Counted from the stretch's first letter, positions 23,463 to 43,435 are shown. The stretch: DNA of 64,000 bases from Dethiobacter alkaliphilus (GCA_016841605.1 JAENYV010000010.1:1-64000), one strand, 5' to 3'. Numbers and translations: made by a program. The notes: generated by a model from the sequence alone, not told the origin.

Positions 23463-23602
23463 CAATAAATTTTTAAAAATACGGCCGGCCTTAGAGAGAT
23501 TAAATAAAAAATTACACCATTACCTAAATTTACTATATAACAAAAAGTTTTAAGAGAAATGGTCAAGAAAGAACGTAGTATAATATGGAAGGAGGTGAAC
23601 GA

Positions 23603-24148
23603 ATGGACTATTCAGAAAATGAGCTCATTTCCGCAATAAAAAAGCGAAATTTAAACGCTTATGGCTTTTTAATCAAAGAATATGCAAAACCTGTTTATTA
23701 CTTGACCTATAATATTCTAAACATCGGCAATAGTAAAGAGGACATAGAAGAGTGCGTATCCGATGTTTTATTAGAGGTCTGGCTGAAAATTAACGAATTT
23801 AACAGCGAGAGAAGCAATTTTAAAACGTGGATTTTAACCCTAACAAAATATAAAGCCCTTACTTATAAGCGCAAACTTAAAAAAAATTATGTTGAAAACA
23901 TTGATGATTACCAGGTTGAGGAGCCTGATAACGTGGAAAAACAGATCATCGACAGGGAAACGCAAAAAAAACTGTTGGAGATAATCAATAGCTTTAATAA
24001 AACGGACAAGGAGCTCTTTATCCGCAGGTATTTTTATAACGAGAAAATTGGTGACATCATGCAATCTTTGGGGTTGAGCCGTTCCGCGGTAGACAACAGG
24101 CTTCTAAGAGGTAGAAAGATAATCAAGGAGGTTTTATCCTTTGACTGA
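23603..24148 (+). CDS. ECF-type RNA polymerase sigma factor
   Basis: A 181-residue sigma-70 family protein of the extracytoplasmic-function type. Region 2 covers about residues 5-75 (AYGFLIKEYAKPVYYLTYNI, then DIEECVSDVLLEVW and FKTWILTLTKYKA). Region 4 covers about 120-180 and includes a helix-turn-helix (IGDIMQSLGLSRSAVDNRLL). ATG at 23603 is right because AAGGAGGTG lies just before it; an ATG at 23585 would include that site. The stop overlaps the start of the DUF4179 gene by eight bases, as sigma/anti-sigma pairs usually do. Confidence 0.92.
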   Translation: MDYSENELISAIKKRNLNAYGFLIKEYAKPVYYLTYNILNIGNSKEDIEECVSDVLLEVWLKINEFNSERSNFKTWILTLTKYKALTYKRKLKKNYVENIDDYQVEEPDNVEKQIIDRETQKKLLEIINSFNKTDKELFIRRYFYNEKIGDIMQSLGLSRSAVDNRLLRGRKIIKEVLSFD

Positions 24149-25555: not shown

Positions 25556-27157
25556 TCAGCTTATTTGGAAAATAGACCAAATAATGCCCTCCGATCCGCC
25601 TCCACCCAGGTCAAGAGGTACGGTTAAACCGTCAGCTTCATAGAAGAAACCTATAACGTCTCCCGCAACCAATTCAACTTCGCCTGCTAATGTCACTGTA
25701 CCACTTCCCAATATGGTTCTCAGTGTTAAAACAAGAGCCACATCCACATTTAATAAAGGAAACAGTCCAGTAATTAAATCCGTAACGATTGGAGAAGTCC
25801 TTCTGACCACAAATGCCGGATTGATTCCTGCGCCAAGACTAACCGTTATGGAAGCAGTAGTGGAATAGTTTATTGTTGCTTCAATAGAATATATTCCACT
25901 TGTTGGAACAGTGTAATTTCCTGTCACTTCATCAAAGGTAGCACTATCAAAATAAGGTGAAGTGACAGTCCAGCCCGTTAACTGTGTGGTTGCGGCAGTT
26001 GCGACTGTGGGAAGAAATGCTGAAAAGCCCTCTTGAGATATAGTTCCGGTAGGTCCGGTAACACCAGCGATCCCGGTAGGCCCAATAGCACCGGTAGGTC
26101 CGGCGGGACCAGTCGGTCCGGTAGGCCCAGTAGGCCCTGTAACTCCAGCGGGTGCTGTAGGTCCAGCAGGCCCGGTAGGTCCTATCGCACCGGTTGTACC
26201 AATAGGCCCTGTCGGTCCAGTAGGTCCTGTAGCGCCGGCGGGTCCGATATCACCAGGCAGCCCTGTCGGTCCAGTCGGCCCGGTAATGCCAGCGGTTCCG
26301 GTAGGTCCGGCAGGTCCAGTCGGTCCAATAGCACCGGTCGGCCCGGCAGGCCCAGCGGGACCAGTAGCACCAGCGGGTCCAGTAGGTCCAGTAGCACCAG
26401 CGGGTCCAGTAGGTCCAGTAACGCCAGCGGTTCCGGTAGGCCCAACAGCACCTGTAGCGCCAGCAGGTCCGGTAGGTCCTATCGCACCGGTTGTACCAAT
26501 AGGCCCTGTCGGTCCAGTAGGTCCTGTAGCGCCGGCGGGTCCGATATCACCAGGCAGCCCTGTCGGTCCAGTCGGCCCGGTAATGCCAGCGGTTCCGGTA
26601 GGTCCGGCAGGTCCAGTCGGTCCAATAGCACCGGTCGGCCCGGCAGGCCCAGCGGGACCGGTCGGTCCGGTAGCACCGTCTAACCCTTCCGCTGCTAATA
26701 AGGCAACATCATCAACAATTATATCGGCAGTACCTAATGCAGACAGCCTATTAACCAGCACGAGAGCTTGGGTCGCTCCAACCGGTGCGGGACCGGTGGT
26801 CACATAAATTTCTAGCCAATCATTATCTTCAACATTTCCTAGACGGTCCGTATCAATAACGGCAATGAGTTCATATCCGACAAAGTTAAAACCGGCATCA
26901 TAAAAAGGAATTGACAAAGAAACTTGCGGACTTGGCAATTCTCCCACTTTAGCCAAAGAAACCAAAAATTCATATCTTTCTCCTGCTTCCACAGGAACAA
27001 TTTGATAGACGTATGAATTGAGAACCCCATCTGTTAATCTTGCTGCGAAATACCCGGAATGACTAAAATCTCTGGTAATTGTTGCATTTAATGAAACCCA
27101 GGGTGGAAAGGAATTAGTTTCAAAACCGCCGTTTACTATTAAATTATTTAAAGACAC
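25556..27157 (-). CDS. Collagen-like (Gly-X-Thr) surface protein, BclA-like
   Basis: A 533-residue protein in three parts. Residues 1-155 form a beta-sandwich carbohydrate-binding-like domain ([15 protein letters not shown] at the start, [10 protein letters not shown] at the end). Residues about 158-375 are Gly-Pro-Thr collagen triplets ([10 protein letters not shown]). Residues about 380-533 form a beta-rich C-terminal head like that of BclA ([19 protein letters not shown]). In Bacilli and Clostridia such proteins trimerise and form hair-like filaments on spores. GTG at 27157 is the start, with GAGAGGTG upstream. The N-terminal domain has no signal peptide, which fits assembly onto the spore from the mother cell. 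A 189-bp exact repeat lies inside the collagen region. Confidence 0.85.
26174..26659 (-). repeat. Duplicated 189-bp block in the collagen region
   Basis: 26174-26362 and 26471-26659 are identical over 189 bases (63 residues), with a 297-base (99-residue) offset. The collagen frame is kept. Shorter GGTCCAGTAGGTCC-type repeats fill the whole region, so length variation by recombination is likely. Confidence 0.85.
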
Positions 27158-27818: not shown

Positions 27819-30800
27819 ATGAAGTTGACATGGCGATGGACAATTATGAGAATTATGATGGTAATGATTGCCGGTGCTTTAACACTGGTTGTTCCGGCAG
27901 GAGTAGTGCAGGCTGATGAGGTAGCAACATATCCGCTGGAAGACGGTTTCGAGGCGGAAGAACCAGCTGCCTGCTGGACGGTATCAGGCACTTATAGTGG
28001 AGACCAAAACTGGGGATTCCCGGATGAGAATTATACAGGGGGGACTCACAGTGGGGACAGGTGTCTGACCAGCAGTCCCACGGGCAGCTATGGCAATAAC
28101 GAGGAACGCATTTTGTTAACAGTTGTAGATTTTACCTATTCCCCCAGTGAGCCGGTATTGAGCTTCTGGCAGCGCTACAACCTGGGTGTAGGAGACTACA
28201 TCTGTGTGGAGATATCCCAGGATCAGGGCAGCACCTGGAGCCGGTTGTATGGTGTTACCGGGATGAAACTGGGCTGGCACCAGGTTAGAATTTCCCTGGC
28301 TTCTTATCGAAACGAAGAAGATCTGCAGGTGCGCTTTAAACTTAAAAGTGATTCGGCTGACTGCCAGGACGGCTGGTACATAGATGATGTAAAGATTGCT
28401 GAAGGAACAACCGACCCGGCGCTACCGGTTCCTTTTCTCGATGGAGCTGAAACCGGAAGCAGTGAAGATTTATGGAACAGTTCCAGCTGGGTAAGAAGCG
28501 ATGATGATGCCTATGATGGCGACAACTGCTGGTATATAGTAAACAATGACCCGTACAAGGGTTATTATTACCTGACCAGTGCACGGAATTTCGACCTTTT
28601 CGGAACGACCAGTCCGGAACTGGTATACATGCAAAAGGCAGACCAGTATGATCGACTTTATGTCCAGGTTTCAACCAACAATGGCCTGACCTGGAAGACC
28701 TTAAACTATGAAGATGTAGGAGAATGGCCTCCCTCAAGCTGGAGCCGCAAAGTAGTAGATCTTTCCGATTATACTGATCAAAAGATCCGCCTGCGTTTTT
28801 ATTTAAATAAAGATAGTGCCGGGTGGTGGATGCTGGATAATATCAGTATCGCTGACGCAGAAGCGGGAGTAGTGCTGGAAGAACCCGTACTGAACGGATA
28901 CAACGGGCTGGATCTGTCCTGGAGCAGATATACGGGGGATGACTTTTTAAGATATGAGATTCGCCGTTCTACCAGTTCCGGGGTAACCTTTAATTCCTAT
29001 CTGGTAAATACGATTAACGACATCGAAACATTAAATTACACTGATACCGGGCTTGCTATGAACCGGGACTATTATTATAAGATTTATGTAGTTAAAACAG
29101 GGGGAGTAGTAAGTTCGGCCGGTAATGAAGTACAGGGTCAAACTGCATCCTGGCCTTACCCGCTTATTGATGATTTTGAAAGCGGGGAACTGCAGCCGTG
29201 GTGGAGTTATGTTAATGGTGATTTTAGTGACGGTAGAACCTGGGGATTATGCAGCAGTTATACTAATGGTTCCGGTTATTGTGTGACCAGCAGCCCTGGG
29301 GGAAGCTATACAAGCTATGATGAACGCATTTTGCAGGCCGCAGTGAGCCTTTCTGATGCCGCTTCTCCGGTTCTCAGTTTCGACCATTATTATCACGTGG
29401 GCAGCGGAACCTGCATTTCGGTGGAGATTTCAACCGACGGCAGTAATTGGGAGAAACGATATGCCCGATACGATAGTGGAAGTAATGATATGTGGACTAG
29501 GGAAAGGGTGGACCTTTCCTCATACCAGGGAAAAGATGTAGTGTTCCTGCGTTTCCGTCTGAAAAGCTACCAGGGCAGTGGTGGTGAAGGATGGTATATT
29601 GATGATGTACAAATTGAAGACGGCGTTTTAGAACCGGTAGTTAATCTTCCCTTTATGGATGATGCTGAAACTGCATACAGTGAAGAAATATGGAACAGCT
29701 CCGCCTGGTATTTAAGCTACGGTGACAGTTCCAGCGGAGAAAAATCCTGGTTTGTAAACAGCAATAATATTTCTGATGGAACCTATTACCTGACTTCAGC
29801 AAAAAAAATAGATTTGAGAGATGTAGAAAATCCGATTCTGGGCTTCTGGGAGAAATATTATACCAGAGACAGCAGGTTCAGAGTTGAATTATCGCTCAAT
29901 GATGGCCTTTCTTGGAAAACCATTAGATATTACAGAGATACGAGAGAAGGTGTAACTACTTCCTGGCAGTGGATGCAGGTGGATCTGTCACCCTATCGCG
30001 GACAAAAAATAAGGCTGCGTTTTTCCATGGACTGCAACCGGGACGGCTGGTGGAGACTGGATGATATAACTATTGCCGAGCAGACCGGCGGGGTTGAGTT
30101 GCAAGCCCCGGTGCCGCTCAGTCATACCAGCCTGCAGCTCAACTGGAGCCGGAGCAACCTGAGCCCGGAAGAATTCCTCCGTTACGAAATCCGGCGTTCG
30201 AAAGAGCCGGGGGTAGATGTTGTCTCCACCCTAGTATATACGGAATACGACTCTGCCATAACCAGCTATGTGGACAGCAATCTGGATCAGAACCAGGTCT
30301 ATTATTACAAGGTTTATGAAGTCGGAAGAGAAAACATCTTTGCCGGCAGTAATGAAGTCATGTCCACGACCTCCTACCCTTACTATACCAGTTATCCGGT
30401 CTATGATAATTTCGAAGGAGACAGTGTCGATGCGGACTGGAGCCTGACCACGTGGGGAATAGCTGAAGGTAAGGGACGCAATGGCGGAAAATGTCTTACG
30501 GACAGCCCGGATACGGTTTACGGCAATAATGAAAACCGGATATTGACCACCGCGGTAGACCTGCGCCTGGCCCAAATGCCGGTCCTTACCTTCTGGCACC
30601 GGCATAATCTGGCCACCGGTGACCTGGGCTATGTTACAATATCTACCGACCAGGGGGCAAACTGGACCAGGTTGTTTGTTACCGGCGGGGTAATAGACGG
30701 GTGGAAAGAAGAAAACATTGATCTAAGTTTTTATGCGGGACAATCCGATATTTGGTTGGCTTTCCACCTGGACACGGACAGTGACGTAGTTACAGACGGC

Positions 30801-32285
30801 TGGTATATAGATGATGTGAGCATAGCTGAAACCGCCACCCCGGTCCTGGATTACCCGTTTGTTGCAGACGCTGAAGATCCATCCGGTCTAGTAAAAATTT
30901 TTGATTCCGGCTGGCAGGAGACCGTTGATGCAGCCTACAGTGGTAAAAAAGGATGGTATGTGGATTATCGGGATCCTTATAAGGGGATGTACTATCTTAC
31001 TGCCTCCGGAAGTATTGATCTTAACGATGCAATCAACCCGGTCTTAACATTTTGGCATTCTTACTATCTTTCCTATTCAAAAGTGATTGTTCAGGGTTCT
31101 ATTGATGGTGGAATTGAATGGGAAAACATATATTACTGGGAGACTGGATATAACTCAAAAGGTGATTGGGCAAGAACGCAAATTAGCCTTTCGGACTACC
31201 GGGGAGAAAAACTGCGCTTACGTTTCATTACCTATGATGGGAGCGGCTGGTGGAAGATAGACAATATCAGTGTATCGGAAGCCGACAGCATTGAACCGGA
31301 CTCGGTAAATGACCTGCGGGTTAAATTCGCCGGCAATCGCAGTATTACACTTAAATGGACGGCAGTAGGGGATGACGAGAAAAGCGGGCAGGCATATATA
31401 TATGACATAAGGTACTCAACTGAGACAATAGAAGAGAGCAACTTTGAAGAGGCGACCCAGGTGATAAGTGTTGTTCAACCCCAGACCGCCGGAATGACAG
31501 AGAGTATAACTATTAATAATCTGTACCCTGCTACTGCTTACTATTTTGCCGTCAAAGCGGCTGATGAACTGCTTCAGTGGTCGGGAATTTCCAATATAGC
31601 AACAGGTACGACAACCCACGAAATCTCACCGGGTGCTGCTGCTGTTGAGGCCAGGTTCAGGACTGATCCGGCCGGGCAATTGGGAGAATTCCTGCAGGAG
31701 ATGGTCGGAGGACATGATTATACGTATACAATATATATTGATGCTTCCCAGGTGCAGCAGCTGCACGCGGCCAGTTATAATATTACTTATGATCCGGAAA
31801 TCCTTGAGGTTACCGGTGTTACCGACGGTCTGATCGGTGAAGTTAATCTGCCGGTAGACAACTGGAATATAATAGAACCGGGAGAAGCAGGTCAGCCGAA
31901 TCGGGTCAGTATAGTGCAGGAAGTCGAGGCAGATGGTAGCGCCAGTGGGGACGGCTATCTGGCGGTTCTGCAGGTAAGGCCTGTTGCGGGAAACAGGCTT
32001 GATACATCTATCGGGTTTGAAGATGGTGAACTCACCCGCTTGGAAGACGGCGGTGAAGAAATAACCGCCGAGTGGTACGGATGCAGCTTTATCCGCACTG
32101 ATTATTACAGTGGTGATGCGAATGGTGATAACGCAGTTAATGCTATTGATCTCGTCAAAGCAAAGAGATTTGTCGTTGAACTGGATATGGATGATCCACA
32201 AAAGGGTGCTGATGCCAACCATGATGGTGATATAAGTGCAATGGACGTTACCAGGGTAAGATACATCATCATGGAGGCCATCTAA
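27819..32285 (+). CDS. Giant secreted protein: repeated anchor-J/MAM-like modules, FN3, cohesin-like domain and dockerin
   Basis: A 1488-residue exported protein (signal peptide about 1-32). It has three copies of a tandem module: two jelly-roll domains of the choice-of-anchor-J/MAM type (ends GWYIDDVKIAEG near 184, WWMLDNISIAD near 335, GWYIDDVQIEDG near 591, WWRLDDITIAEQ near 744, GWYIDDVSIAET near 994, GWWKIDNISV near 1142), each pair followed by a fibronectin-III-like domain. A cohesin-like domain follows at about 1295-1420. The C-terminus is a type I dockerin with two calcium loops (GDANGDNAVNAIDLVKAKRF and DANHDGDISAMDVTRVRYII). AAAGGAGGG precedes the ATG. The dockerin could dock onto the cohesins encoded by the next two genes. 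It is probably an adhesin or scaffold part; no catalytic domain is seen. Confidence 0.85.
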   Translation: MKLTWRWTIMRIMMVMIAGALTLVVPAGVVQADEVATYPLEDGFEAEEPAACWTVSGTYSGDQNWGFPDENYTGGTHSGDRCLTSSPTGSYGNNEERILLTVVDFTYSPSEPVLSFWQRYNLGVGDYICVEISQDQGSTWSRLYGVTGMKLGWHQVRISLASYRNEEDLQVRFKLKSDSADCQDGWYIDDVKIAEGTTDPALPVPFLDGAETGSSEDLWNSSSWVRSDDDAYDGDNCWYIVNNDPYKGYYYLTSARNFDLFGTTSPELVYMQKADQYDRLYVQVSTNNGLTWKTLNYEDVGEWPPSSWSRKVVDLSDYTDQKIRLRFYLNKDSAGWWMLDNISIADAEAGVVLEEPVLNGYNGLDLSWSRYTGDDFLRYEIRRSTSSGVTFNSYLVNTINDIETLNYTDTGLAMNRDYYYKIYVVKTGGVVSSAGNEVQGQTASWPYPLIDDFESGELQPWWSYVNGDFSDGRTWGLCSSYTNGSGYCVTSSPGGSYTSYDERILQAAVSLSDAASPVLSFDHYYHVGSGTCISVEISTDGSNWEKRYARYDSGSNDMWTRERVDLSSYQGKDVVFLRFRLKSYQGSGGEGWYIDDVQIEDGVLEPVVNLPFMDDAETAYSEEIWNSSAWYLSYGDSSSGEKSWFVNSNNISDGTYYLTSAKKIDLRDVENPILGFWEKYYTRDSRFRVELSLNDGLSWKTIRYYRDTREGVTTSWQWMQVDLSPYRGQKIRLRFSMDCNRDGWWRLDDITIAEQTGGVELQAPVPLSHTSLQLNWSRSNLSPEEFLRYEIRRSKEPGVDVVSTLVYTEYDSAITSYVDSNLDQNQVYYYKVYEVGRENIFAGSNEVMSTTSYPYYTSYPVYDNFEGDSVDADWSLTTWGIAEGKGRNGGKCLTDSPDTVYGNNENRILTTAVDLRLAQMPVLTFWHRHNLATGDLGYVTISTDQGANWTRLFVTGGVIDGWKEENIDLSFYAGQSDIWLAFHLDTDSDVVTDGWYIDDVSIAETATPVLDYPFVADAEDPSGLVKIFDSGWQETVDAAYSGKKGWYVDYRDPYKGMYYLTASGSIDLNDAINPVLTFWHSYYLSYSKVIVQGSIDGGIEWENIYYWETGYNSKGDWARTQISLSDYRGEKLRLRFITYDGSGWWKIDNISVSEADSIEPDSVNDLRVKFAGNRSITLKWTAVGDDEKSGQAYIYDIRYSTETIEESNFEEATQVISVVQPQTAGMTESITINNLYPATAYYFAVKAADELLQWSGISNIATGTTTHEISPGAAAVEARFRTDPAGQLGEFLQEMVGGHDYTYTIYIDASQVQQLHAASYNITYDPEILEVTGVTDGLIGEVNLPVDNWNIIEPGEAGQPNRVSIVQEVEADGSASGDGYLAVLQVRPVAGNRLDTSIGFEDGELTRLEDGGEEITAEWYGCSFIRTDYYSGDANGDNAVNAIDLVKAKRFVVELDMDDPQKGADANHDGDISAMDVTRVRYIIMEAI

Positions 32286-32322
32286 TGGGGCCACTAAGTG
32301 AAAATGAAAGGAGGGCTTCAAG

Positions 32323-35300
32323 ATGCGCCTAAAACGTCTATCCAAAAAGATAATGTCCATATTGCTGATACTCTCTTTCCTGGCAGGGCCGCTCAATTTT
32401 TTTACAGTTCAGGCAGAAGAAGAATCATGCAGTATTGAAATAAAGATGCCCGGGCAGGTGCGGACCGGCAGCCGGTTTACCGGTGAAATGCTAATCAGTA
32501 ATGTGCATGATCTCAGCGCGGTTCAGTACGACCTGGTTTTTGATGATACCGAACTGGAGGTAATCCGGGTCTCTGCAGGTCAGATAGGAGAAGAGGCTCT
32601 GCCGGTTACGGACTGGAAAATGGTCAGCGCCGGCCGGATAAGAATATTGCAGGAAACTTCCGGGGAAAACGGTTTATCTGGTTCAGGCTGTCTAAGCAAA
32701 GTTTTGTTTCGTGCCGGCGAGGAGGCAGTAAGCCAGGTCCGGATCGACCTGGACAAGATTGTTTTGAGCAACAGCCTGGCCGAACAAATTACAGCCACAT
32801 GGATATCGGACAAGGTGGAAATTATTACCTGGGAATCATCCCTGGCTATCGCAACAAATTATCTGCCTTCTACGCCGGTCGATGTTCCCTACCAGGAATT
32901 TTTAGTAGGTGAAGGTGGAGCGCCACCTTATCAGTGGGATATGATTGGAGGCGAGCTGCCGGAAGGACTTGAGTTGAACCGGGACAGCGGAGAGATAGCG
33001 GGGATAGCCCGGGAAGAAGGGAGCTTTACTTTTGCGCTCCGGCTTACCGATAATGTGGGAAGTTCGGTTTATAAGGAGATGGGTATGGTTACCGGAGTCA
33101 GTCTGTTTACGGATATCCAGGTTGCAGATCTTATGCGGCCTGATCGCACCTATCCGTTAACTATTTATTACGGCAATGAGGGTGACTTTGAACTGAAAGC
33201 ATCTCTTTTTCGGCTGACCAGCCCGACTAATGCACCCCTGCGCAGCAGTTCGGATGAATCATACGAAGTGGGAGACCGCTATTATCTGGGGATAGGTAAA
33301 AAAGATCCGGCTGATATCCTGGTGAGCGGTTATAATAATAAAATTGAACTTCAGACCCGTGGAACCCATACTTTTACCATGGATTTCGAACTGAATGAAA
33401 TAATACCTGATAATACGGCTTTGGATTGGAATGAAATACTTAATAACCGTCCGGAATATTACGATTCGGACGGGTGGCCGGCAGTTGTGGAAAATCTGCA
33501 AGAGCAGGTGGGGGAGACCACCGCAGAAATGATTGCGGTGTTGAGACAGGATGCGGCTTACTTGAGCCGGGAAGGAATTTTTGTTCAGGATGTTGGTGAG
33601 TTGATGTCGATGGAGGTGGCAGAGGCGCTGGCAACCGGTTTTACTCCTGAACTGGAACAGAGTACGGATGTTTTTTATTCTGCTCCAGGTCCTGACCTGG
33701 AATTTACCCGTTATTATCCCCAGGCACTTGACCGGCGTTACCACCTGGGGTTTTTGGGCCGGGGCTGGCTGCATTCCTACGATATATACCTTGCTAAAGA
33801 CAAAGACAACAATATTATCATAACCGCTCCGGCCTATCGCAGCATCTTCACCAGGGAGGATGACGGCAGCTATCAGCCTCCGGACGGGGATTACAGCCGG
33901 CTGGAAAAAGTATCCGGGGGATATGAATTATCCGACCGGTCAAGTACCAGTTGGTATTTTAATAATGATGGCCGGCTTACAGGTATCGGTGATAAGAACG
34001 GAAACCGCCTTGATCTATCTTATGCGGGCAATCAATTAAAAAGGGTTCAGCATACCAGTGGCCAGTACATCGAGTTTACTTATAATGCCGCAGGGAGAAT
34101 GACCGGCTTAACCGACCATGCCGGAAGGATTACCACTTTCCGCTATGACAGTACCGGAACGTTACTGGCCGAAGTCAAACAGCCGGGGAGCTGGATTAAT
34201 AAATATGAGTATATTACCGAAGCATCCAGCCGGGCCCGGTACAGCCTGAACAAAATCGTCTATGCCGATGGTAGGGAGAGACATCTTGTTTATGACGGTA
34301 AAGGCAGGGTAACGGCTGACCATCCCGGTGACGAAAGCCAAGGTACAATTTATGAATACCCGCGGACAGGCAAGATCATAGTCACAGAGCAACCGGACGA
34401 ACCGATAACCTTTTATTTTAATCAAGACCGGGCTGTTGTACGTATAGTTAATGCGGAGGGAGAAACTGCCTATTATTCCTATGACAATAAAGGCCGGCTA
34501 GTTGAATGTGAAGGACCGGACAGTTTGACGGTGAGCCTTGGCTACGATACTTCAGGCAACCTGACCGTGGTAAAGGATACCGGTGATCATAGTACCTATT
34601 TTTCGTACTATGGAAACAACCTGCCGGCATCTCTGGAAGATGCAAAAGGCAATGTTACCGGTTATCAATACAGTGACAAGGGCAACCTGGAACAGGTGAA
34701 ACTACCGGATGACTGTTCCTATTCCCTGAGCCATGATACCAGGGGGCTGATAACCCGTGCCGCTAATTGTCGCGGTCAGGAAATTGAATACCAGTATGAC
34801 GAACTGGGACGGGTTACGCGAGAAGACTATCCGGATGAAACCTGGATAGAATATGATTACAATGATTCCGGCCGCCTGACTGCAGCCAGGAACAGTTCGG
34901 GTACAATAGAATTGCAGTACAATGAACGCGAGCTCCTGACCAGAGTAAATTACCCCTCAGGTAATTTCCTGAAATACGGCTATGACGAACTGGGACGGTG
35001 CGAAAGCAGGGTGGATCAGACCGGTTTCGCTTTGAACTATGACTATGACGGCCAGGGGCGTTTGGAGAGTATAAAAGACAGCAAAATGAGTCTTATTGTT
35101 GCTTACGAGTACGACCAGGCCGGGCGTATTACCAGAGAAACAAAAGGGAATGGACTAGATACGATATACGACTATAATGAACTGGGACAGCTTGACTCAT
35201 TGGTCAACTATAAGCCGTCAGGTGAGGTTTTATCCGGGTTTAACTATTCGTATGATAAATATAACCGTTGTACTGATGTTGTTACTTCCGCAGGGACAAT

Positions 35301-38300
35301 AAAATATCATTATGACAATGAAGGTCAGTTGACCGGGGTTTCATACCCGGATGGAAATCAGGAAACTTACAGTTATGACGCAGTCGGCAATCGTATTACA
35401 GCAGAAGCAGACGGAAGTAAAAAGAGATATATTACCAACCCGCGCAACCAGTATACTGCGGCGGGGGGCAGTTCTTTCTCCTATGATCCCGACGGCAACC
35501 TGGTAGCGGAAATTGCGCGGGGTATTAATACCACGTACCAGTATGACGCCATGAATCGCCTGGTTGGAGTGCAGTCACCGGATGATACCTGGGAATACTG
35601 TTATGATGTACTGGGTAACCGGTCGTCAGTAATACACAATGGTGAAGAAAGAAGGTTTACCTGTGAACCGTCGGGTATGGTAGATGCTGATGTGGTGACG
35701 GAGTATGACTCAGAGGGAACGGTGATGGCCCGCTACATTTACGGACGGGGCCTGGCTGCGATGATCAATGATAAAGGCAGCTGCCTGTACTATGCCTTTG
35801 ACGGTTCCGGCAACACACAGCAGATTGTTGATTCCAATCTGAATATATTAAACTCCTATGAATATACCCCATTTGGCCTGTTCAATAATAAAAATGAGCT
35901 GGTCCGGAATCCTTTCCAATTTTCGGGTAGGTGGGGGGTTATGGCCGAGGAAGGACAGGAACTGTACTGGATGCGCAACCGGTATTATGATCCGGCCCGG
36001 GGACGGTTTTTGACTGAGGACCCGATCGGATTGTTGGGAGGAGACGAAAACCTGTACAGTTACTGTCATAACGACCCAATCAATTATATTGACCCACTGG
36101 GCACCCGTTGGGGTGAAAATGAAGAGACTATGGGCTTTGGGCGTGGACGTAAGGTGGATTTCACTCCCAAAACTAAGGAGGAGGCTGTCTTTCAAAAGGT
36201 AGTTGGCGGAGGATTATTGGCCATGATCCTGGCACCGGTTGTCGCTTATTTTGGTCCGGCGGTGGTGGCCAAAGGCAAGGTTCTCGCCACCAATGTCGGC
36301 GGTGCCACAATTACTACTCTTGTCAATCATCCGGAGATACCGGAGAAAATGATGAGTTATATTGAAAGTTATTATGGACCGGGTGCTCCCAATTTCAACT
36401 GGTCGGGCCTGGCCGGCTGGGGGTCCAGTCAGCTGGGATTGCATGAATATGTGCTGAGCCGTATTTACGGGGAGAAGAGAAATTCAACTTCATCACTGGC
36501 TATACGTTCATGGGACCCCAATGAGAAAGAAGGGCCGGAAGGTGACGTTGTGGCCGGCAGCACCATATCCTATAAGATTTTGTTTGAAAATGATCCGGAG
36601 GGATACCCCAAGACCGACAACCTGCAAGCAACCGCTGTAGAGCTTAAAGTACAGATTAATGAAGAAGGAAAAGCCTATTATGTAGTCCTGGCTCCGGATG
36701 CTGCGGCACCGGACAGCGAACAGGTCAAAGCAGGTCATGACGGTATGGATGAAGAGGCTGAGATTAAGGGAATGATGGATGTGGCAGCTTATACCGATAT
36801 TACCGCGGAAATAGAAGGGCTGCTTCCACGTACGGAGTATAAGATATATGTAGTAGCTGAAGATGAAAGCTGTAACCTGACCGACGTGCAGGTGCTGGAT
36901 ATTGAGACTCCGGCTGAGACGGAAAGTGGGACATTTTCAACATTATCCGCCGGTGATGGTGCTGAATCCGGAGACGAGACTGTAATGACGGCCTGTTATT
37001 CCGGATTTACGGCTCAGTCTGAGAGTGGCGAAGATAACGAACCTCCTGTCTTTCCCATCGGTTCTACCGCGCCGGTGCAAGAATTAAGGGTAGTTGATAA
37101 TCTCCATCCGGCTTTGGACTGGAGTTCATTCCGGCCTACCGGGTATGGGTTTGGTGACAATGTGTATTTGCTGGATGGTGAGGAGGGCCACTACAGTGGA
37201 AGGGTCAATATTTCTGACTATCGTAATGATATAGATAAAGAATGGTGGGTGGATGTATCTATTGATATTAATCTTATCAATGGACAGATAGTATGGAAAT
37301 TAACCACCCTGGACCCGGATACAGGAGCTCTTCCCCTTGATGCGCTGGCCGGTTTCCTGCCGGTCAATGATAAAGATCTGGCCAATGGTGAAGGATACCT
37401 TACTTATGATGTTAAGGTCCGGGATGATGCGGCCGCGGGAATTAATATTACCAACCAGGCCGAGATATTCTTTGACTATAATCCGGGCATATTTACTCCC
37501 AAAGTGTCCAATATGGTAATAGAACCATCTGAGCCGGTTATTGAAGTGCCGCAGATTGCGCTTAGTACAGAGCGGTTGGACTTCGGTACCCTGGAAGTGG
37601 GTGAAACTGCCGGCAAAATTTTAACAGTCTACAACAGCGGATCATCTACCCTTCAGGTAAGCGAATTTACCGGTCCGTTTACCCCGTTTGTCCTGGAAGG
37701 CGGAGAAAACCTAACCGAAGCAATTCCCCCGGGTGCATCGGTCGAGTTGCAGCTAAGCTTTGCCCCGGTTGTTAAAGGTGATTTCTTAAGTATTCTGACT
37801 ATCAATTCAAATGCGGAAGAAGACGCAGCTACCCAGATAGAGCTGCTTGGTTCTGCGGTTCCGGTCCCGGCTCCGGCTATCATGGCTGTGCCCTGTGAAC
37901 TGGTTTTTGCGGATACGGTCAAAGGAAATTCACTTGAACAGTCTATTGCTATTTATAATAATGGTAATGCCGATTTGAAGATAAGTCAGGCCGGATTTGA
38001 GTCACCGGGGTCAGGCGCTTTTAGCTTGCCGGGTATTGATGAAAGCGAGATAAATGTTGCTCCAGGAAAGTCAATATCATTAAAAGTGCGATTTACCCCC
38101 CCGGAGGCCCCAGAGCCATATGAATATAATGATACTCTGCTTCTCGAAACCAATGACCCGGAATACGGGTTACTGGAAATTACGGTAGCCGGCTCCGGAA
38201 TTCTGCCCGCACCGGATATAGCCCTTTCCAGGGAGAGTATACTTTTTGGCCTGATTAAGGCTGGGGATACGGTTGAACGTTCATTTACAGTAATGAATAA

Positions 38301-39357
38301 AGGTGAAAGCCCGCTTAATATTACCGGAATAACTATAAATAGCGACCCGGCAGGAAGCAACTTCGGGCTGGTAAACGCCTCTCAAGCAGACGGTCTGGAG
38401 GTACCCGGAGGAGCAACGGAAAATATTGCCGTCTTTTTCAACCCGTCGAGTGCGGATCAATATGAGGGAAGTATCTCGATCGCATCCGACGACCCGGATG
38501 AAGGGGAAGTAAAAGTAGCATTAAGCGGAGCAGGGCAGGAAGCGATATTAGTACAGAACATTCAGGTATTTGCATCAGATGGGAAAACGAAGATAGTAGT
38601 TGGGGATACTGTCCAGATTCAAGCTGAAGTCCTGCCTGCTGAAGCAGAGAACAAGACTGTTAATTGGTCGGTTGAATTCCAGGAAGCAGCAACTATTGAT
38701 CAACAGGGGCTCCTGAACGCCCGGCAATTAGGTTCTACTGTAGTTACAGCGACAGCGGCAGACGGTTCCGGAATAACAGGAACATTGGAAATTATAGTTA
38801 TTGAAGACAGAGCAGAGCTCGAAGCCGGCATCCAGTCGGCCCAGGAATTGTATAATAGTTCGGTTGAGGGTGAAGAACCGGGCCAGTATGTCCCAGGTTC
38901 CAGGGAAGAGCTGTACAATGCCATATCCGCTGCCCGGTCCACAGCTGAAAATGATACTGCAACACAACAGGAGCTGGACGATGCTCTAGCTGTTCTCAAC
39001 CAGGCAGTAGAGGATTTCGAGGCGGGTCAGGTTAAGGACGAGTGTTTTATTGCGACTGCGGCTTATGGTTCCAAGTTTACTCCGGAAGTTACAGTGTTGC
39101 GCGACTTTAGAGACCAATATCTGATGAACAGTTTGCTCGGAAAAAGTATAGTAGAATTCTATTATCGTCATTCTCCTCCCCTGGCAGAATATATCGCTAA
39201 AAAACCAGCCATAAAAACTGCAGTTAGATTGATGTTGCTGCCTGTGGCTGGTTTTGCTTATCTATTATTGCACTATCAGGCATTTATTATGTTATTGATG
39301 CTAGTATTGGCTCTAGTGATATTAAGAAGCAGGAAAGGAGAAAAGATACTATCATGA
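32323..39357 (+). CDS. Giant RHS/YD-repeat surface protein with N-terminal cohesin and CFI-box membrane tail
   Basis: A 2344-residue exported protein. After the signal peptide (1-31) come a cohesin-like domain (about 35-165), a putative Ig domain (about 170-260; LPEGLELNRDSGEIAG), a DUF6531-type start of the RHS shell (TDVFYSAPGPDLEFTRYYP, near 447) and many YD repeats (about 500-1190). The RHS core-associated motif is at about 1198-1260 (YYDPARGRFLTEDPIG). The post-core part includes a WDPNEK-type domain (about 1395-1745), three choice-of-anchor-D-like beta domains (about 1745-2072), a BIG2-like domain (2078-2158), a FIVAR-like helical repeat (2165-2235), the CFIATAAYGS box (near 2240) and a terminal membrane segment. 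The usual variable toxin tip is replaced by these long extracellular domains. It overlaps the next gene by four bases. Confidence 0.88.
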   Translation: MRLKRLSKKIMSILLILSFLAGPLNFFTVQAEEESCSIEIKMPGQVRTGSRFTGEMLISNVHDLSAVQYDLVFDDTELEVIRVSAGQIGEEALPVTDWKMVSAGRIRILQETSGENGLSGSGCLSKVLFRAGEEAVSQVRIDLDKIVLSNSLAEQITATWISDKVEIITWESSLAIATNYLPSTPVDVPYQEFLVGEGGAPPYQWDMIGGELPEGLELNRDSGEIAGIAREEGSFTFALRLTDNVGSSVYKEMGMVTGVSLFTDIQVADLMRPDRTYPLTIYYGNEGDFELKASLFRLTSPTNAPLRSSSDESYEVGDRYYLGIGKKDPADILVSGYNNKIELQTRGTHTFTMDFELNEIIPDNTALDWNEILNNRPEYYDSDGWPAVVENLQEQVGETTAEMIAVLRQDAAYLSREGIFVQDVGELMSMEVAEALATGFTPELEQSTDVFYSAPGPDLEFTRYYPQALDRRYHLGFLGRGWLHSYDIYLAKDKDNNIIITAPAYRSIFTREDDGSYQPPDGDYSRLEKVSGGYELSDRSSTSWYFNNDGRLTGIGDKNGNRLDLSYAGNQLKRVQHTSGQYIEFTYNAAGRMTGLTDHAGRITTFRYDSTGTLLAEVKQPGSWINKYEYITEASSRARYSLNKIVYADGRERHLVYDGKGRVTADHPGDESQGTIYEYPRTGKIIVTEQPDEPITFYFNQDRAVVRIVNAEGETAYYSYDNKGRLVECEGPDSLTVSLGYDTSGNLTVVKDTGDHSTYFSYYGNNLPASLEDAKGNVTGYQYSDKGNLEQVKLPDDCSYSLSHDTRGLITRAANCRGQEIEYQYDELGRVTREDYPDETWIEYDYNDSGRLTAARNSSGTIELQYNERELLTRVNYPSGNFLKYGYDELGRCESRVDQTGFALNYDYDGQGRLESIKDSKMSLIVAYEYDQAGRITRETKGNGLDTIYDYNELGQLDSLVNYKPSGEVLSGFNYSYDKYNRCTDVVTSAGTIKYHYDNEGQLTGVSYPDGNQETYSYDAVGNRITAEADGSKKRYITNPRNQYTAAGGSSFSYDPDGNLVAEIARGINTTYQYDAMNRLVGVQSPDDTWEYCYDVLGNRSSVIHNGEERRFTCEPSGMVDADVVTEYDSEGTVMARYIYGRGLAAMINDKGSCLYYAFDGSGNTQQIVDSNLNILNSYEYTPFGLFNNKNELVRNPFQFSGRWGVMAEEGQELYWMRNRYYDPARGRFLTEDPIGLLGGDENLYSYCHNDPINYIDPLGTRWGENEETMGFGRGRKVDFTPKTKEEAVFQKVVGGGLLAMILAPVVAYFGPAVVAKGKVLATNVGGATITTLVNHPEIPEKMMSYIESYYGPGAPNFNWSGLAGWGSSQLGLHEYVLSRIYGEKRNSTSSLAIRSWDPNEKEGPEGDVVAGSTISYKILFENDPEGYPKTDNLQATAVELKVQINEEGKAYYVVLAPDAAAPDSEQVKAGHDGMDEEAEIKGMMDVAAYTDITAEIEGLLPRTEYKIYVVAEDESCNLTDVQVLDIETPAETESGTFSTLSAGDGAESGDETVMTACYSGFTAQSESGEDNEPPVFPIGSTAPVQELRVVDNLHPALDWSSFRPTGYGFGDNVYLLDGEEGHYSGRVNISDYRNDIDKEWWVDVSIDINLINGQIVWKLTTLDPDTGALPLDALAGFLPVNDKDLANGEGYLTYDVKVRDDAAAGINITNQAEIFFDYNPGIFTPKVSNMVIEPSEPVIEVPQIALSTERLDFGTLEVGETAGKILTVYNSGSSTLQVSEFTGPFTPFVLEGGENLTEAIPPGASVELQLSFAPVVKGDFLSILTINSNAEEDAATQIELLGSAVPVPAPAIMAVPCELVFADTVKGNSLEQSIAIYNNGNADLKISQAGFESPGSGAFSLPGIDESEINVAPGKSISLKVRFTPPEAPEPYEYNDTLLLETNDPEYGLLEITVAGSGILPAPDIALSRESILFGLIKAGDTVERSFTVMNKGESPLNITGITINSDPAGSNFGLVNASQADGLEVPGGATENIAVFFNPSSADQYEGSISIASDDPDEGEVKVALSGAGQEAILVQNIQVFASDGKTKIVVGDTVQIQAEVLPAEAENKTVNWSVEFQEAATIDQQGLLNARQLGSTVVTATAADGSGITGTLEIIVIEDRAELEAGIQSAQELYNSSVEGEEPGQYVPGSREELYNAISAARSTAENDTATQQELDDALAVLNQAVEDFEAGQVKDECFIATAAYGSKFTPEVTVLRDFRDQYLMNSLLGKSIVEFYYRHSPPLAEYIAKKPAIKTAVRLMLLPVAGFAYLLLHYQAFIMLLMLVLALVILRSRKGEKILS

Positions 39358-41150
39358 AAAAAGGCTTTCCGGCGCAGTTATTATTGATAATTTTAGTAGC
39401 AGTTCCGGTATTAGGTGGCTTTATGCCGGTAACTGCCAGGGCTAATGGTGAGTCGGCGGTTAATTGTAATGTATCGGCAGGAAGCGAAACAGGAACATTG
39501 CTTGTTACCGTAACTATTGATGATGTTGAGGATTTATGCGCTGCTAACTATGATTTGATATTTGATTCATCCAAACTCGAAATTTTCGAGGTAAGCGCCG
39601 GAGAAATAAATGGACATAATATACCTGTTTCCATGTGGAGAGAAATAGTGTCCGGAAGGGTTCGGTTAGTTCAAGATCTACCAGGCATTACCGGTGTAAG
39701 CGGCTCTGGAACCATGGCGAAATTGTCATTTAAAATTATTGATACCAGTATCACTGTGGCACAAATTACCACGCTACGCTTGGAGCAAGGTATACTTAGT
39801 AATACCAGTGCTGAAGCGATTTCTGCCGTGTGGAATTCAACCTCACAAGCAGATGAAGAAAAGCCTACAGAAAGCCCTGAAGAAATCGAGTCAGGTCCCA
39901 CAACACAAACGCCAACAGGAGATGCCAATTCTTTAACTGAAAGCGACCCAACTTCGGGAAGCGACCCAACTTCGGGAGGCGGTTCATCTTCGAAAAAGAA
40001 TTCATCTTCTTTGGGAGCATTATTAAGTAATAATGGGCAAGTAATTTATGATTTGCCCTGTGAGAAAGAAGAAAATAACACAATAGCAAATTTGAACGGG
40101 AGTACCCTGAATAAACTAATATCCGAGGGAAAAGATATATTTGAAATTAATGGAGGTTTGGCTTCTCTATATCTTCCATTGTCGATATTTACCAGTCTCG
40201 ATAATACGACAAGTGAAAGTAATCTTAAAGACTGGTCGGTGCAAATTGCAATCCAACAATATAATGAAGATTCTAACCAAGAAATTGCTGTAAACTTATC
40301 CAATCAGGGCGCAACTTTGTTAGGGGAACCTGTAACATTTACCATTTTGCCTCAAGAGGGAGTTGAACCTCTGTCCTACAATAACTTTCAGCAAAATTGC
40401 CTTAAGGTCCTGGATTTTCCGGACGACATAAAAGAAGAAGACGTAACCAGTGCGGTTAAAATATTATCTGACGGAAACATCCGGCATGTTCCCACTTTAT
40501 TTACGACCAGAAACGAAAGGCCGTGCGCACTGGTAAATAGTCCGGGGACTGGAACCTATGCTTTAATAAAGAATGAAGTTCAGTTTTTAGATGTGGATAA
40601 TCACTGGGCCAGTGAGCACCTGATGGATATGGCTTCCAGACTGGTAATTAAAGGAACCGGTGAACAGCTTTTCGAACCGGAACGCAGTATAAACAGGGCC
40701 GAATTTGCAGCCATGATGGTGCAAGCACTGGGTTTATCCGGTTCTAATGAAGAAGAGACATTTCAGGATGTGGATGACGGCGAATGGTATTCCTCTTCTG
40801 TAAACACTGCTGCTGTATACAAATTAATTGCAGGTTATGAAGATGAGACATTTAAGCCTCATAATACTATCAGCAGACAGGAAGCAATGGCGGTAATTGG
40901 ACGGGCTATGCTCATGGAGGGTCTGGATATCTCCGTCTCTCAGCAGGAAATTGACGTACTCCTCAGCCGGTTTGTGGATAATAACAACATTGCCGACTGG
41001 GCACGCCAGGCAACTGCTGCCTGTGTAAAAAGCAATATTATTAATGGTTATGAGGATGGAAATATATGGCCGGATGAAAAGTTGAGCCGGGCTCAGGCTG
41101 CCACTATGATTAGAAAATTTCTTCAAGTAGCCGGTTTAATAAATTCTTAG
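39354..41150 (+). CDS. SLH-anchored cohesin protein
   Basis: A 598-residue exported protein. The signal peptide (1-30) is followed by a cohesin-like domain (about 33-160; NYDLIFDSSKLEIFEVSAGE) and a Ser/Thr/Pro linker (about 165-225) with a tandem GSDPTS repeat. A middle domain of unknown type occupies about 230-400. Three SLH domains (about 405-595) include FLDVDNHWASEHL, FQDVDDGEWYSSSVNTA and FVDNNNIADWARQA, with the RAEFAAM/RQEAMAV/RAQAATM motifs. SLH domains bind pyruvylated secondary wall polymer, so the cohesin would be displayed on the cell surface, ready to bind a dockerin such as that of the gene at 27819. ATGA overlap with the RHS gene indicates coupling. A strong terminator follows. 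Confidence 0.9.
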   Translation: MKKGFPAQLLLIILVAVPVLGGFMPVTARANGESAVNCNVSAGSETGTLLVTVTIDDVEDLCAANYDLIFDSSKLEIFEVSAGEINGHNIPVSMWREIVSGRVRLVQDLPGITGVSGSGTMAKLSFKIIDTSITVAQITTLRLEQGILSNTSAEAISAVWNSTSQADEEKPTESPEEIESGPTTQTPTGDANSLTESDPTSGSDPTSGGGSSSKKNSSSLGALLSNNGQVIYDLPCEKEENNTIANLNGSTLNKLISEGKDIFEINGGLASLYLPLSIFTSLDNTTSESNLKDWSVQIAIQQYNEDSNQEIAVNLSNQGATLLGEPVTFTILPQEGVEPLSYNNFQQNCLKVLDFPDDIKEEDVTSAVKILSDGNIRHVPTLFTTRNERPCALVNSPGTGTYALIKNEVQFLDVDNHWASEHLMDMASRLVIKGTGEQLFEPERSINRAEFAAMMVQALGLSGSNEEETFQDVDDGEWYSSSVNTAAVYKLIAGYEDETFKPHNTISRQEAMAVIGRAMLMEGLDISVSQQEIDVLLSRFVDNNNIADWARQATAACVKSNIINGYEDGNIWPDEKLSRAQAATMIRKFLQVAGLINS

Positions 41151-41217: not shown

Positions 41218-41254
41218 AAGAAAGCCCGGCACCAAAAACGGTCCGGGCTTTCTT
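41218..41254 (+). terminator. Terminator of the giant surface operon
   Basis: AAGAAAGCCCGG (41218-41229) pairs perfectly with CCGGGCTTTCTT (41243-41254). A very similar hairpin occurs at 49479-49510 after the SLH remnant. Confidence 0.85.
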
Positions 41255-41283
41255 GGAAATTCTAATTATGAGGTATTTTACAC

Positions 41284-42477
41284 ATGGCTGAATTTAAGAA
41301 TAAAATTGCCTTAGCTAAAGCACTATGGTCAAACATGCAGATCATAAAGGTAAAACCTTCGCTCAATTGGTTCCTGATTAAATATATGGGAAAGTTCAAT
41401 TTGTTGAATATAGACGGGCAGTTGATAATTCATTCGCATCTGCCTTCAATAAACAGCAAAGCCTTTACCCGCTTTATAAATGAGCATCTGCTGGCAAGGA
41501 CAGAGGGACCCTCCCACGCTCAAATCGGTTTGACCAATGCCTGTCCCCAGAATTGCCTATATTGTTACAACAAAAAAAGAAAAGGGGAGCTTCTCAATAC
41601 GTCTGAAATCAAGCAGGCCATACAGGAACTGAAAAAAATGGGCGTTTTCTGGCTTGGCTTTACGGGCGGGGAACCGCTTCTGAACAAAGATATTGTTGAG
41701 ATAGTAAAAAGTGTCGGAGATGATTGCGCAATAAAGCTGTTTACCACAGGCATCAACCTTACGGAACAATTGGCGGTAGATCTTAAGAAAGCAGGCCTTT
41801 TGTACGTCTCAATCAGCCTGGACCATTGGGCAGAGAAAGAACATGACCGGATCAGGGGTTACATAGGGGCCTTTCGGACGGCACTCAGGGCTATAGACTT
41901 ATTTAAAAGCATTGGAGTTCATGTAAGTGTATCAGCAGTCATATCCAGAAAGATGCTTCAAGGAAATCAGGTACAGGAATTTCTAAAATTTCTGATAGAC
42001 CTTGGTGTCCATGAAGCCTGGCTGAGTGAAACCAAACCGACGGTAGAGGCTTTCTGGAACGAAGCTTCAGTCATTACCGAAGAGGAAAGGCTCAGCCTGG
42101 TAAGATTGCAGGATAAATATAATAAAGAGGGTAAAATAACGGTAAATTATCTTGGACATTTTGAGGGAAGAGAGCATTTCGGCTGTAATGCAGGCAATAA
42201 AATGGTTTATCTAGACGCATTCGGAGAGGTAAGCCCCTGTGTATTTACACCCATGACCTTTGGAAATGTGCGGGATAAGTCGGTACAAGCCGTTTTTGGG
42301 GAGATGAAAAAGCATTTTCCATCGGAAAGCTGTTGCTTTATTAACAGAAACTATGCATTACTGAAAAAATATTCTAGGGGAGAAGCTCCGATCAGTAAAG
42401 AAAATACCCTGGAGATGATGAAGGAAGTTCGGTTTAGTCCGATGTCCCGGTTTTCACGATTGAATAAGAAGCGATAA
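41284..42477 (+). CDS. Radical SAM protein with SPASM-like C-terminus
   Basis: A 397-residue radical SAM enzyme. The [4Fe-4S]-binding cysteines are C87, C91 and C94 in ACPQNCLYC, and the GGEP SAM-binding motif is in GFTGGEPLLNKD. The C-terminal part has CNAGNKMVYLDAFGEVSPC and CC in ESCCF, which may bind an auxiliary cluster as in SPASM proteins. It resembles heme-biosynthesis/peptide-modifying types (AhbD/PqqE-like), but the substrate is not evident. It heads a four-gene operon with a small membrane protein, a V4R/ATC-hydrolase-like protein and an FeS-GMC oxidoreductase. Confidence 0.85.
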   Translation: MAEFKNKIALAKALWSNMQIIKVKPSLNWFLIKYMGKFNLLNIDGQLIIHSHLPSINSKAFTRFINEHLLARTEGPSHAQIGLTNACPQNCLYCYNKKRKGELLNTSEIKQAIQELKKMGVFWLGFTGGEPLLNKDIVEIVKSVGDDCAIKLFTTGINLTEQLAVDLKKAGLLYVSISLDHWAEKEHDRIRGYIGAFRTALRAIDLFKSIGVHVSVSAVISRKMLQGNQVQEFLKFLIDLGVHEAWLSETKPTVEAFWNEASVITEEERLSLVRLQDKYNKEGKITVNYLGHFEGREHFGCNAGNKMVYLDAFGEVSPCVFTPMTFGNVRDKSVQAVFGEMKKHFPSESCCFINRNYALLKKYSRGEAPISKENTLEMMKEVRFSPMSRFSRLNKKR

Positions 42478-42496
42478 AAATTGTGGAGGTATATGT

Positions 42497-42898
42497 ATGA
42501 GATTGTATAAAATATTCAGCCTTACCGCTGCAGCAATATTCGCAGTTGTGGGCTTGTTTTTTTTATTTTTCCCTACTTCGGTCCTGATTTTTTTCAACAG
42601 CATTTCAGCTTATTTCAAATTACCCCAATCTCCGGTACAAGGTGCCGGCTTTTATCTAATCCTGGCTTCAGCTTATATGTATCTTGTAACTTTGCTTGCC
42701 TACATGATGTACCGATATCCGGAGCAGAAGATTTATCCGATTTTATTGGCCCACGGCAAACTGGCATCTTCCCTTGTTTCCATATATCTATTCTTGAAGC
42801 ACCAGCCTTATCTGATTTATTTTGTTAACTTTGTTATTGATGGTTTTCTTGGTATTGCAGCGTTATACCTTATGAAAATGAAAGAAACAGAGGTTTGA
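42497..42898 (+). CDS. Small four-helix membrane protein, unknown function
   Basis: A 133-residue protein with four predicted membrane segments (about 7-28, 45-70, 80-100, 105-125). GGAGGT lies seven bases before the ATG at 42497. It is the second gene of the radical SAM operon; the next start lies two bases past its stop. No conserved catalytic motif is visible. It may anchor or assist the oxidoreductase or transport its substrate. Confidence 0.7.
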   Translation: MRLYKIFSLTAAAIFAVVGLFFLFFPTSVLIFFNSISAYFKLPQSPVQGAGFYLILASAYMYLVTLLAYMMYRYPEQKIYPILLAHGKLASSLVSIYLFLKHQPYLIYFVNFVIDGFLGIAALYLMKMKETEV

Positions 42899-42900
42899 TT

Positions 42901-43434
42901 ATGCTTCAGAAAATAATGCAGCTCTACATCCCTGCATTTATTAAGAAGAAAAAGCTGAAGGAATTGTTCCGCTTGACGGCTGATGCCTTCCAAAGCGAGT
43001 TGCCGGAGCTCCGGGGATTTTCTTTTGCCGAGTGCTTATCTGAATATGCCTTATTTACAAAGGAACAGGCTGAGGGCTGTTTAAAGAGCGGATCTCTCCA
43101 AGAAGAAATAAAACTCCGGTTGTATCAAAATTCTTATCTTTTAGGACGAAACCTGAGAAAATGCCTTCATATCAAAACCTGGGAAGAGGCTGCTGCGGCG
43201 CTTAAGGTTATTTATAAACTTATCGGGATAGATTTTCAATATGACAGGCAGGGTGAAATTATAATCCAACAGTGCTTTTTCAGCAAATATTATTCCGGAG
43301 AAGTTTGCAAGCTTATTTCTTCACTGGATGAAGGGCTGGCAGCAGGATTATCAGGTGGCGGCAGGCTGTGCTTTAAGCAAAGGATCACTGAAGGCGACAG
43401 CTGCTGTAAAGGATATTTTAGCGGGGGACTTTAA
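42901..43434 (+). CDS. Possible L-2-amino-thiazoline-4-carboxylate hydrolase-like/V4R-like protein
   Basis: A 177-residue soluble protein. The N-terminal part is helical and basic; the C-terminal part has IIQQCFFSKYYSGEVCKLIS and RLCFKQRITEGDSCCKGYF. Cysteines near the end and the overall shape recall the ATC-hydrolase/V4R families, which handle small thiol-containing or hydrophobic ligands. This is tentative. ATG at 42901 is preferred to an in-frame TTG at 42895 because AGAGG is spaced eight bases away. Its stop is one base before the GMC gene start. Confidence 0.45.
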   Translation: MLQKIMQLYIPAFIKKKKLKELFRLTADAFQSELPELRGFSFAECLSEYALFTKEQAEGCLKSGSLQEEIKLRLYQNSYLLGRNLRKCLHIKTWEEAAAALKVIYKLIGIDFQYDRQGEIIIQQCFFSKYYSGEVCKLISSLDEGLAAGLSGGGRLCFKQRITEGDSCCKGYFSGGL

Positions 43435-43435
43435 A

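What the first reader, a model, noticed from the sequence alone, without database searches (positions are those of the whole stretch)
27819..41150. Cohesin-dockerin surface assembly built around a giant RHS protein, with no sugar-degrading enzymes
Three adjacent genes carry a dockerin plus cohesin-like domain, a cohesin plus RHS shell, and a cohesin plus three SLH anchors. None has a glycoside hydrolase domain. Known cellulosomes use cohesin-dockerin pairs; here the parts may build a cell-surface fibre or contact device in which the dockerin protein docks on the wall-anchored cohesin and on the RHS protein.
Basis: partly seen in the sequence, partly recalled or inferred. Interest (0 to 1): 0.7.

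Follow-up and report, generated by a model that had tools for sequence, protein, structure and literature searches.

The report
Cohesin-dockerin surface kit without cellulosome
Three neighbouring genes appear to make a snap-together cell-surface structure that uses the plug-and-socket parts of cellulose-digesting machines but carries no digestive enzymes, and the same kit recurs with different cargo around this genome and in at least two other bacterial lineages.

Summary
Observation confirmed. P1 (27819-32285): MAM/reelin-like array + fn3 + cohesin + dockerin. P2 (32323-39357): cohesin + RHS shell + Ig-like stalk. P3 (39354-41150): cohesin + 3 SLH. No glycoside hydrolase in any. The genome has 16 dockerin and 27 cohesin matches (12 and 24 over cut-off). 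Five other loci repeat the plan: dockerin protein (often cargo-Coh-Doc) plus Coh...CFI-box anchor; two of them also have Coh-SLH. No dockerin protein has a Pfam glycoside hydrolase; GH9 and CBM3 are absent. Similar cassettes occur in a Clostridia MAG and two Dehalococcoidia MAGs. The window cohesins form one clade with the Dehalococcoidia ones; cohesin and dockerin similarity co-vary across cassettes (Mantel r about 0.5, p<=0.001). P1 and P2 cohesins fold as cohesins. Most likely P1 docks on the P2 (membrane) and P3 (wall) cohesins, perhaps chaining through its own cohesin, to display adhesive modules. Binding is not shown. Non-cellulosomal cohesin-dockerin proteins and Coh+Doc+Rhs scaffoldins are already known; the dual-anchor cassette, CFI-box scaffoldin and many parallel classes look new.

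The parts
27819..32285 (+). P1, 1488 aa: signal peptide, MAM/reelin-subrepeat-like array (choice-of-anchor J), fn3, cohesin, C-terminal dockerin
31686..32084 (+). P1 cohesin (residues 1290-1422), sub-threshold in Pfam but cohesin fold
32112..32258 (+). P1 dockerin; two complete calcium loops (32112-32150 GDANGDNAVNAID, 32211-32246 DANHDGDISAMD)
32323..39357 (+). P2, 2344 aa: signal peptide, cohesin, He_PIG, RHS shell, DUF7619, three ASH/choice-of-anchor D domains, Big_2, FIVAR, CFI-box-CTERM
32428..32838 (+). P2 cohesin (residues 36-172)
33652..36102 (+). P2 RHS shell, DUF6531 to RHS-associated core
39043..39354 (+). P2 CFI-box-CTERM domain with hydrophobic segment and basic tail, probable membrane anchor
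   Evidence: anchor role inferred
39354..41150 (+). P3, 598 aa: signal peptide, cohesin, Ser/Thr-rich linker, three SLH repeats; start overlaps the P2 stop by 4 nt
39453..39851 (+). P3 cohesin (residues 34-166)
40563..41147 (+). P3 three SLH repeats (wall anchor)
41218..41255 (+). Hairpin after P3, probable transcription terminator closing the operon
   Evidence: -27.8 kcal/mol, z -5.25; the T-run is short

Best explanation
A three-gene operon for a non-cellulosomal cohesin-dockerin surface assembly. P2 is a long scaffoldin held in the cytoplasmic membrane by its C-terminal CFI-box segment; its Ig-like stalk and RHS barrel carry a cohesin at the outer tip. P3 is a short scaffoldin held on the wall by three SLH repeats and shows a cohesin of the same class. 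P1 carries an array of MAM/reelin-like sandwiches and docks by its C-terminal dockerin on either cohesin; its own cohesin, next to the dockerin, could take the dockerin of another P1, so short chains are possible. The displayed array is most likely adhesive (cell-cell or surface contact). Shown: domain content, cohesin fold, gene layout, recurrence of the cassette, shared cohesin clade, cohesin-dockerin co-variation. Inferred: the binding itself, the membrane-anchor role of the CFI-box, chain growth, and adhesion as function.
For: Domains. Cohesin folds confirmed for P1 and P2. Intact dockerin. Gene layout with 37-nt gap, 4-nt overlap and closing hairpin. P1/P2/P3 cohesins are one clade, joined by the cohesins of Dehalococcoidia cassettes (99/95), and the nearest dockerin to P1 is also from there. 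Cohesin and dockerin similarity correlate over 13 cassettes, r=0.52-0.53, p<=0.001. The plan dockerin protein + Coh...CFI (+ Coh-SLH) recurs at C17, C25, C34, C22 and C30 of the same genome and in CSMAG_113 and two Dehalococcoidia MAGs. No dockerin-bearing glycoside hydrolase.
Against: Co-variation also follows from co-inheritance of neighbouring genes. The CFI-box has no published function (one search found no paper). The P1 cohesin is divergent and may not bind. The adhesion role rests on domain types only.
Confidence: 0.6

Rival explanations
1. P1 is mainly a self-assembling fibre subunit: its dockerin binds the cohesin of the next P1, and P2 and P3 only start or anchor the fibre.
For: Coh-Doc tandem in P1 and again in the C34, C25, C17 and Dehalococcoidia cargo proteins.
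Against: P1's cohesin is the most divergent of the three (18.5 bits; long branch); a self-binding tandem would also compete with the anchors.
Confidence: 0.15
2. The cohesin beside the P1 dockerin is a structural helper, like the X-module of type II dockerins, not a socket.
For: Direct tandem with almost no linker; low Pfam score of the P1 cohesin.
Against: The model gives no sign of rigid packing: pTM 0.62, dockerin pLDDT about 53-68, though the alignment was shallow. Tandem cohesins in other cargo proteins score well above the cut-off (C34 52.9 bits; C25 47.6 bits).
Confidence: 0.1
3. P2 is an RHS toxin-delivery protein (contact-dependent competition) and the cohesins are incidental.
For: RHS repeats and core with the DP...DPLG motif kept; a hydrophobic stretch right after the core.
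Against: No toxin domain found after the core; the chain runs on about 1000 residues into DUF7619, ASH, Big_2, FIVAR and CFI-box, and the next gene is the SLH scaffoldin P3, not an immunity gene.
Confidence: 0.06
4. A cellulosome remnant or a degradative complex with unrecognised enzymes.
For: Same module types and SLH anchor; related scaffoldins with Rhs exist in cellulosome producers (PMC6780208); one CSMAG_113 neighbour has a GH18 domain.
Against: No dockerin-bearing glycoside hydrolase; GH9 and CBM3 absent with working controls. GH48 gave no match but its control was silent.
Confidence: 0.05

Closest known systems
Non-cellulosomal cohesins and dockerins (A. fulgidus cohesin 2XDH; ANME archaea, PMC9012536; reviewed by Peer et al. 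2009, cited there, not readable here)
   Same: Cohesins and dockerins on non-CAZyme surface proteins; 2XDH is the best or second-best structural match of the P1 and P2 cohesins; S-layer linkage and contact with partner cells suggested in ANME-2c
   Different: Here a repeated operon with a dockerin protein, a CFI-box anchor and sometimes an SLH anchor, with many parallel classes in one genome
ScaO/ScaP scaffoldins of Clostridium alkalicellulosi and Acetivibrio cellulolyticus (PMC6780208, PMC3413522)
   Same: Cohesin and Rhs on one polypeptide; in C. alkalicellulosi the ScaP2 dockerin was shown to bind type II cohesins including those of SLH anchors
   Different: Those carry peptidase and galactose-oxidase modules and live beside full cellulosomes; P2 has no dockerin and ends in a CFI-box, and this genome has no GH9 or CBM3
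SLH anchoring scaffoldins (OlpA, SdbA, ScaC/ScaD/ScaF type)
   Same: P3 = signal peptide, cohesin, linker, three SLH
   Different: Partner is a MAM-type protein, not an enzyme or an enzyme-loaded scaffoldin
Clostridium perfringens cohesin-like modules (2JH2, 2VO8, 2W1N)
   Same: Cohesin outside a cellulosome, strong structural match to P2; FIVAR modules also occur there (own knowledge)
   Different: Those sit on secreted glycan-degrading enzymes
RHS / YD-repeat shells
   Same: RHS repeats and core domain
   Different: No C-terminal toxin found; N-terminal cohesin, C-terminal stalk and CFI-box

Membership tests
Cellulosome | Dockerin-bearing glycoside hydrolases or other CAZymes | tested here: not met
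   Pfam on the dockerin ORFs found no GH; one weak match with stops (C30:332034) was not scanned
Cellulosome | Cellulose-binding CBM3 scaffoldin and GH9/GH48 cellulases | tested here: not met
   No CBM3 and no GH9 with ringing controls; GH48 none, control silent
Non-cellulosomal cohesin-dockerin system | Bona fide cohesin and dockerin modules on non-CAZyme proteins | tested here: met
Non-cellulosomal cohesin-dockerin system | Specific cohesin-dockerin binding | not testable with these tools
   Only indirect: co-variation r about 0.5
SLH-anchored scaffoldin (P3) | Signal peptide, cohesin and three SLH on one chain | tested here: met
CFI-box-CTERM protein (P2) | C-terminal match above the NCBIfam cut-off | tested here: met
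   95.2 bits against 40
RHS toxin (CDI-like polymorphic toxin) | RHS repeats and RHS-associated core | tested here: met
RHS toxin (CDI-like polymorphic toxin) | C-terminal toxin domain followed by an immunity gene | tested here: not met
   No toxin family after the core; chain continues about 1000 residues; next gene is P3

The most novel reading that the evidence does not exclude
A general, exchangeable cell-surface plug-board: one non-cellulosomal bacterium carries at least six mutually specific cohesin-dockerin classes, each a cassette of a dockerin protein, a CFI-box membrane socket and sometimes an SLH wall socket. Cassettes of the same class occur in Bacillota and Chloroflexota, so matched pairs have been kept or exchanged across phyla to display contact proteins rather than enzymes.
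Probability: 0.35. Interest if true: 0.78.

Novelty: new variant of a known kind. Interest (0 to 1): 0.6.

Why it matters
Cohesins and dockerins outside cellulosomes have been noted for years without a clear system in which to test them. Here is a repeated, compact cassette with defined cargo, two kinds of anchor and apparent locus-by-locus specificity, which makes the question of what non-cellulosomal cohesins do directly testable. If the classes are mutually specific, they would also supply new orthogonal binding pairs and a new kind of scaffoldin anchor.

Tried and rejected
The first genome-contig scan with P3 found no relatives; the second, with the Coh-CFI proteins, worked. Relatives of P1 in the order match mostly its MAM-like region. 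Presence of CFI-box and cohesin in the same genome is not clearly associated across the phylum sample (5 genomes with both; 18 with CFI, 71 with cohesin, of 398), so the claim rests on same-protein and same-operon linkage. A search for other RHS+cohesin fusions in 398 genomes found none among the listed matches, but the list was cut. Peer et al. 2009 is not held. No paper mentions CFI-box-CTERM, and none combines Dehalococcoidia with cohesin and dockerin. Cellulosome and RHS-toxin readings were considered and set aside for the reasons given under rivals.

Full report
Observation. The three ORFs stand at the stated coordinates, without N. P1 has six reelin-B/MAM-like matches, fn3, a cohesin (18.5 bits, below Pfam's 24.1) and a dockerin (E=3.1e-7). 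P2 has a cohesin (28.6 bits), He_PIG, RHS repeats and core, DUF7619, three ASH domains, Big_2 and FIVAR. P3 has a cohesin (26.4 bits) and three SLH. NCBIfam adds that P2 ends in CFI-box-CTERM (95 bits, cut-off 40), followed by a hydrophobic helix and basic residues. All three have a signal-peptide-like N-terminus. The P1-P2 gap is 37 nt with a GGAGG site, P2 and P3 overlap by ATGA, and a strong hairpin (-27.8 kcal/mol, z -5.25) follows P3. The three genes are therefore probably one operon (inference).

Are the cohesins real? The P2 cohesin folds with pLDDT 93, and the 50 PDB matches listed are all cohesins or cohesin-containing chains. The P1 domain folds with pLDDT about 77-95 over its core and likewise matches cohesins, with 2XDH (A. 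fulgidus, non-cellulosomal) first. A profile of window and related cohesins finds solved cohesins at E down to 3e-17. The dockerin matches solved type I dockerins, and both calcium loops are complete. So the domains are not unrelated look-alikes; whether the binding face works was not tested.

Genome context. The genome (4.07 Mb, 98% complete) has 16 dockerin matches, 12 over cut-off, and 27 cohesin matches, 24 over cut-off. Pfam on these proteins and their neighbours shows dockerin proteins with an RCC1 propeller and Big_5, PQQ-like propellers with Big_2, a subtilase, a phosphoesterase and Shr-like domains, and cohesin proteins with BspA-type LRR or NHL propellers. No dockerin protein has a glycoside hydrolase. 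GH9 and CBM3 are absent genome-wide with working controls; GH48 gave no match but its control was silent.

The repeating unit. Sequences and the CFI-box scan show a recurring plan: a dockerin protein, often cargo ending in Coh-Doc; a cohesin protein ending in CFI-box; and sometimes a Coh-SLH protein. C25 and C17 have all of these (and are paralogous to each other); C34, C22 (35-40 kb) and C30 (230 kb) have a dockerin protein and Coh...CFI; C28 is the window. In this view P2 is the CFI-anchored socket with an RHS barrel inserted in its stalk, and P3 is the SLH-anchored socket. RHS repeats occur nowhere else in the genome, so RHS is an option, not the core.

How unusual. Relatives in the same order have none to five cohesins. 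In a sample of 398 genomes of the phylum this genome has 30 first-look cohesin candidates, the next 11. The CFI-box is found in 18 of 398, with at most 3 matches per genome elsewhere, against 22 over cut-off here.

Elsewhere. A scan with the Coh-CFI proteins found 70 loci, nearly all with a CFI-box. Local profiles show independent cassettes among them. Clostridia MAG CSMAG_113 has Coh-Coh-CFI; subtilase-Coh-Coh-Doc, further dockerin ORFs and Coh-SLH beside a 2010-aa CFI protein; and RCC1-Big_5-Coh-Doc. Dehalococcoidia MAGs CSMAG_1233 and CSMAG_1257 have beta-helix cargo-Coh-Doc followed directly by Coh-Big_5-CFI. One CSMAG_113 ORF beside these has a GH18 domain and a weak local dockerin match, so the absence of enzymes holds for this genome, not for every host. 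The Dehalococcoidia contigs have 57-58% GC against 45% in the window, so they are not pieces of this species; misbinning of MAG contigs cannot be excluded, and the two are nearly identical in sequence.

Specificity. The cohesins of P1, P2 and P3 are one clade (95/95), joined by those of the Dehalococcoidia cassette (99/95). The RCC1 cassettes of C34 and CSMAG_113 group in the same way, and so do their SLH cohesins with C25 and C17. Dockerin similarity and cohesin similarity correlate over 13 cassettes (r=0.52, none of 20000 permutations; r=0.53, p=0.0009 without the clearest duplicates). This fits pairs that are kept together, but also simple co-inheritance.

Mechanism. P1 docks on the P2 and P3 sockets; P2 lifts its socket from the membrane by its stalk; P3 offers a wall-held socket; P1's own cohesin would allow chain growth. 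The MAM/reelin-like array, the RHS barrel and the lack of enzymes point to contact or adhesion rather than degradation. These steps are inferred. The RHS core keeps its DP...DPLG motif, so self-cleavage is possible but untested; the hydrophobic stretch after the core is unexplained.

Known relatives. Non-cellulosomal cohesins and dockerins are known, also in ANME archaea, where contact with partner bacteria was suggested (PMC9012536). Scaffoldins with Coh, Doc and Rhs are known in the cellulosome producer C. alkalicellulosi (ScaO1, ScaO2, ScaP2; PMC6780208), which likens them to ScaO and ScaP of A. cellulolyticus (PMC3413522). The parts and the general idea are therefore not new. I found no description of CFI-box-anchored cohesins, of the dual-anchor cassette, or of many parallel classes in a genome without cellulosomal enzymes; absence from an open-access library is weak evidence. 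I rate it a new variant of a known kind.

Noticed in passing
window 25556-27157 (-): Collagen-like protein with long GPT/GPA repeats and an N-terminal NTTRR-F1 domain, divergent from the P1 operon.
   Followed up: partly
window 36106-36492: Hydrophobic stretch and a domain of no known family right after the RHS core of P2, where RHS toxins carry their toxin; function unknown.
   Followed up: partly
window 41284-44725: Radical SAM/SPASM protein, two small ORFs of no family and a GMC-type FAD oxidoreductase, possibly a peptide-modification or redox cluster.
   Followed up: no
window 23585-25460: ECF-type sigma factor followed by a 439-aa ORF of no family, perhaps its regulator.
   Followed up: no
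window 9491-9716: Four CRISPR-DR2 repeats.
   Followed up: no
L062 8418-16435 and L063 6841-15372: C25 and C17 hold two paralogous copies of a four-part cohesin-dockerin cassette (Coh-SLH, Coh-Doc, Coh-CFI, propeller-Coh-Doc).
   Followed up: yes
L166 (G000:C34:95000-110312): The genome has 22 CFI-box proteins, one in an open frame of 9882 residues; most have no cohesin.
   Followed up: partly
L056 11785-14873 against L098 6612-9700: A stretch next to a C30 cohesin-dockerin cluster is about 77% identical in DNA over 3 kb to a Pelotomaculum MAG contig, hinting at exchange or a mobile surface gene.
   Followed up: partly
L066, L072, L076, L083, L164: A small cohesin locus (Coh+He_PIG+cadherin-like; Coh+copper-amine-oxidase N-domain; dockerin near) is shared with relatives and may be the ancestral set of the lineage.
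   Followed up: partly
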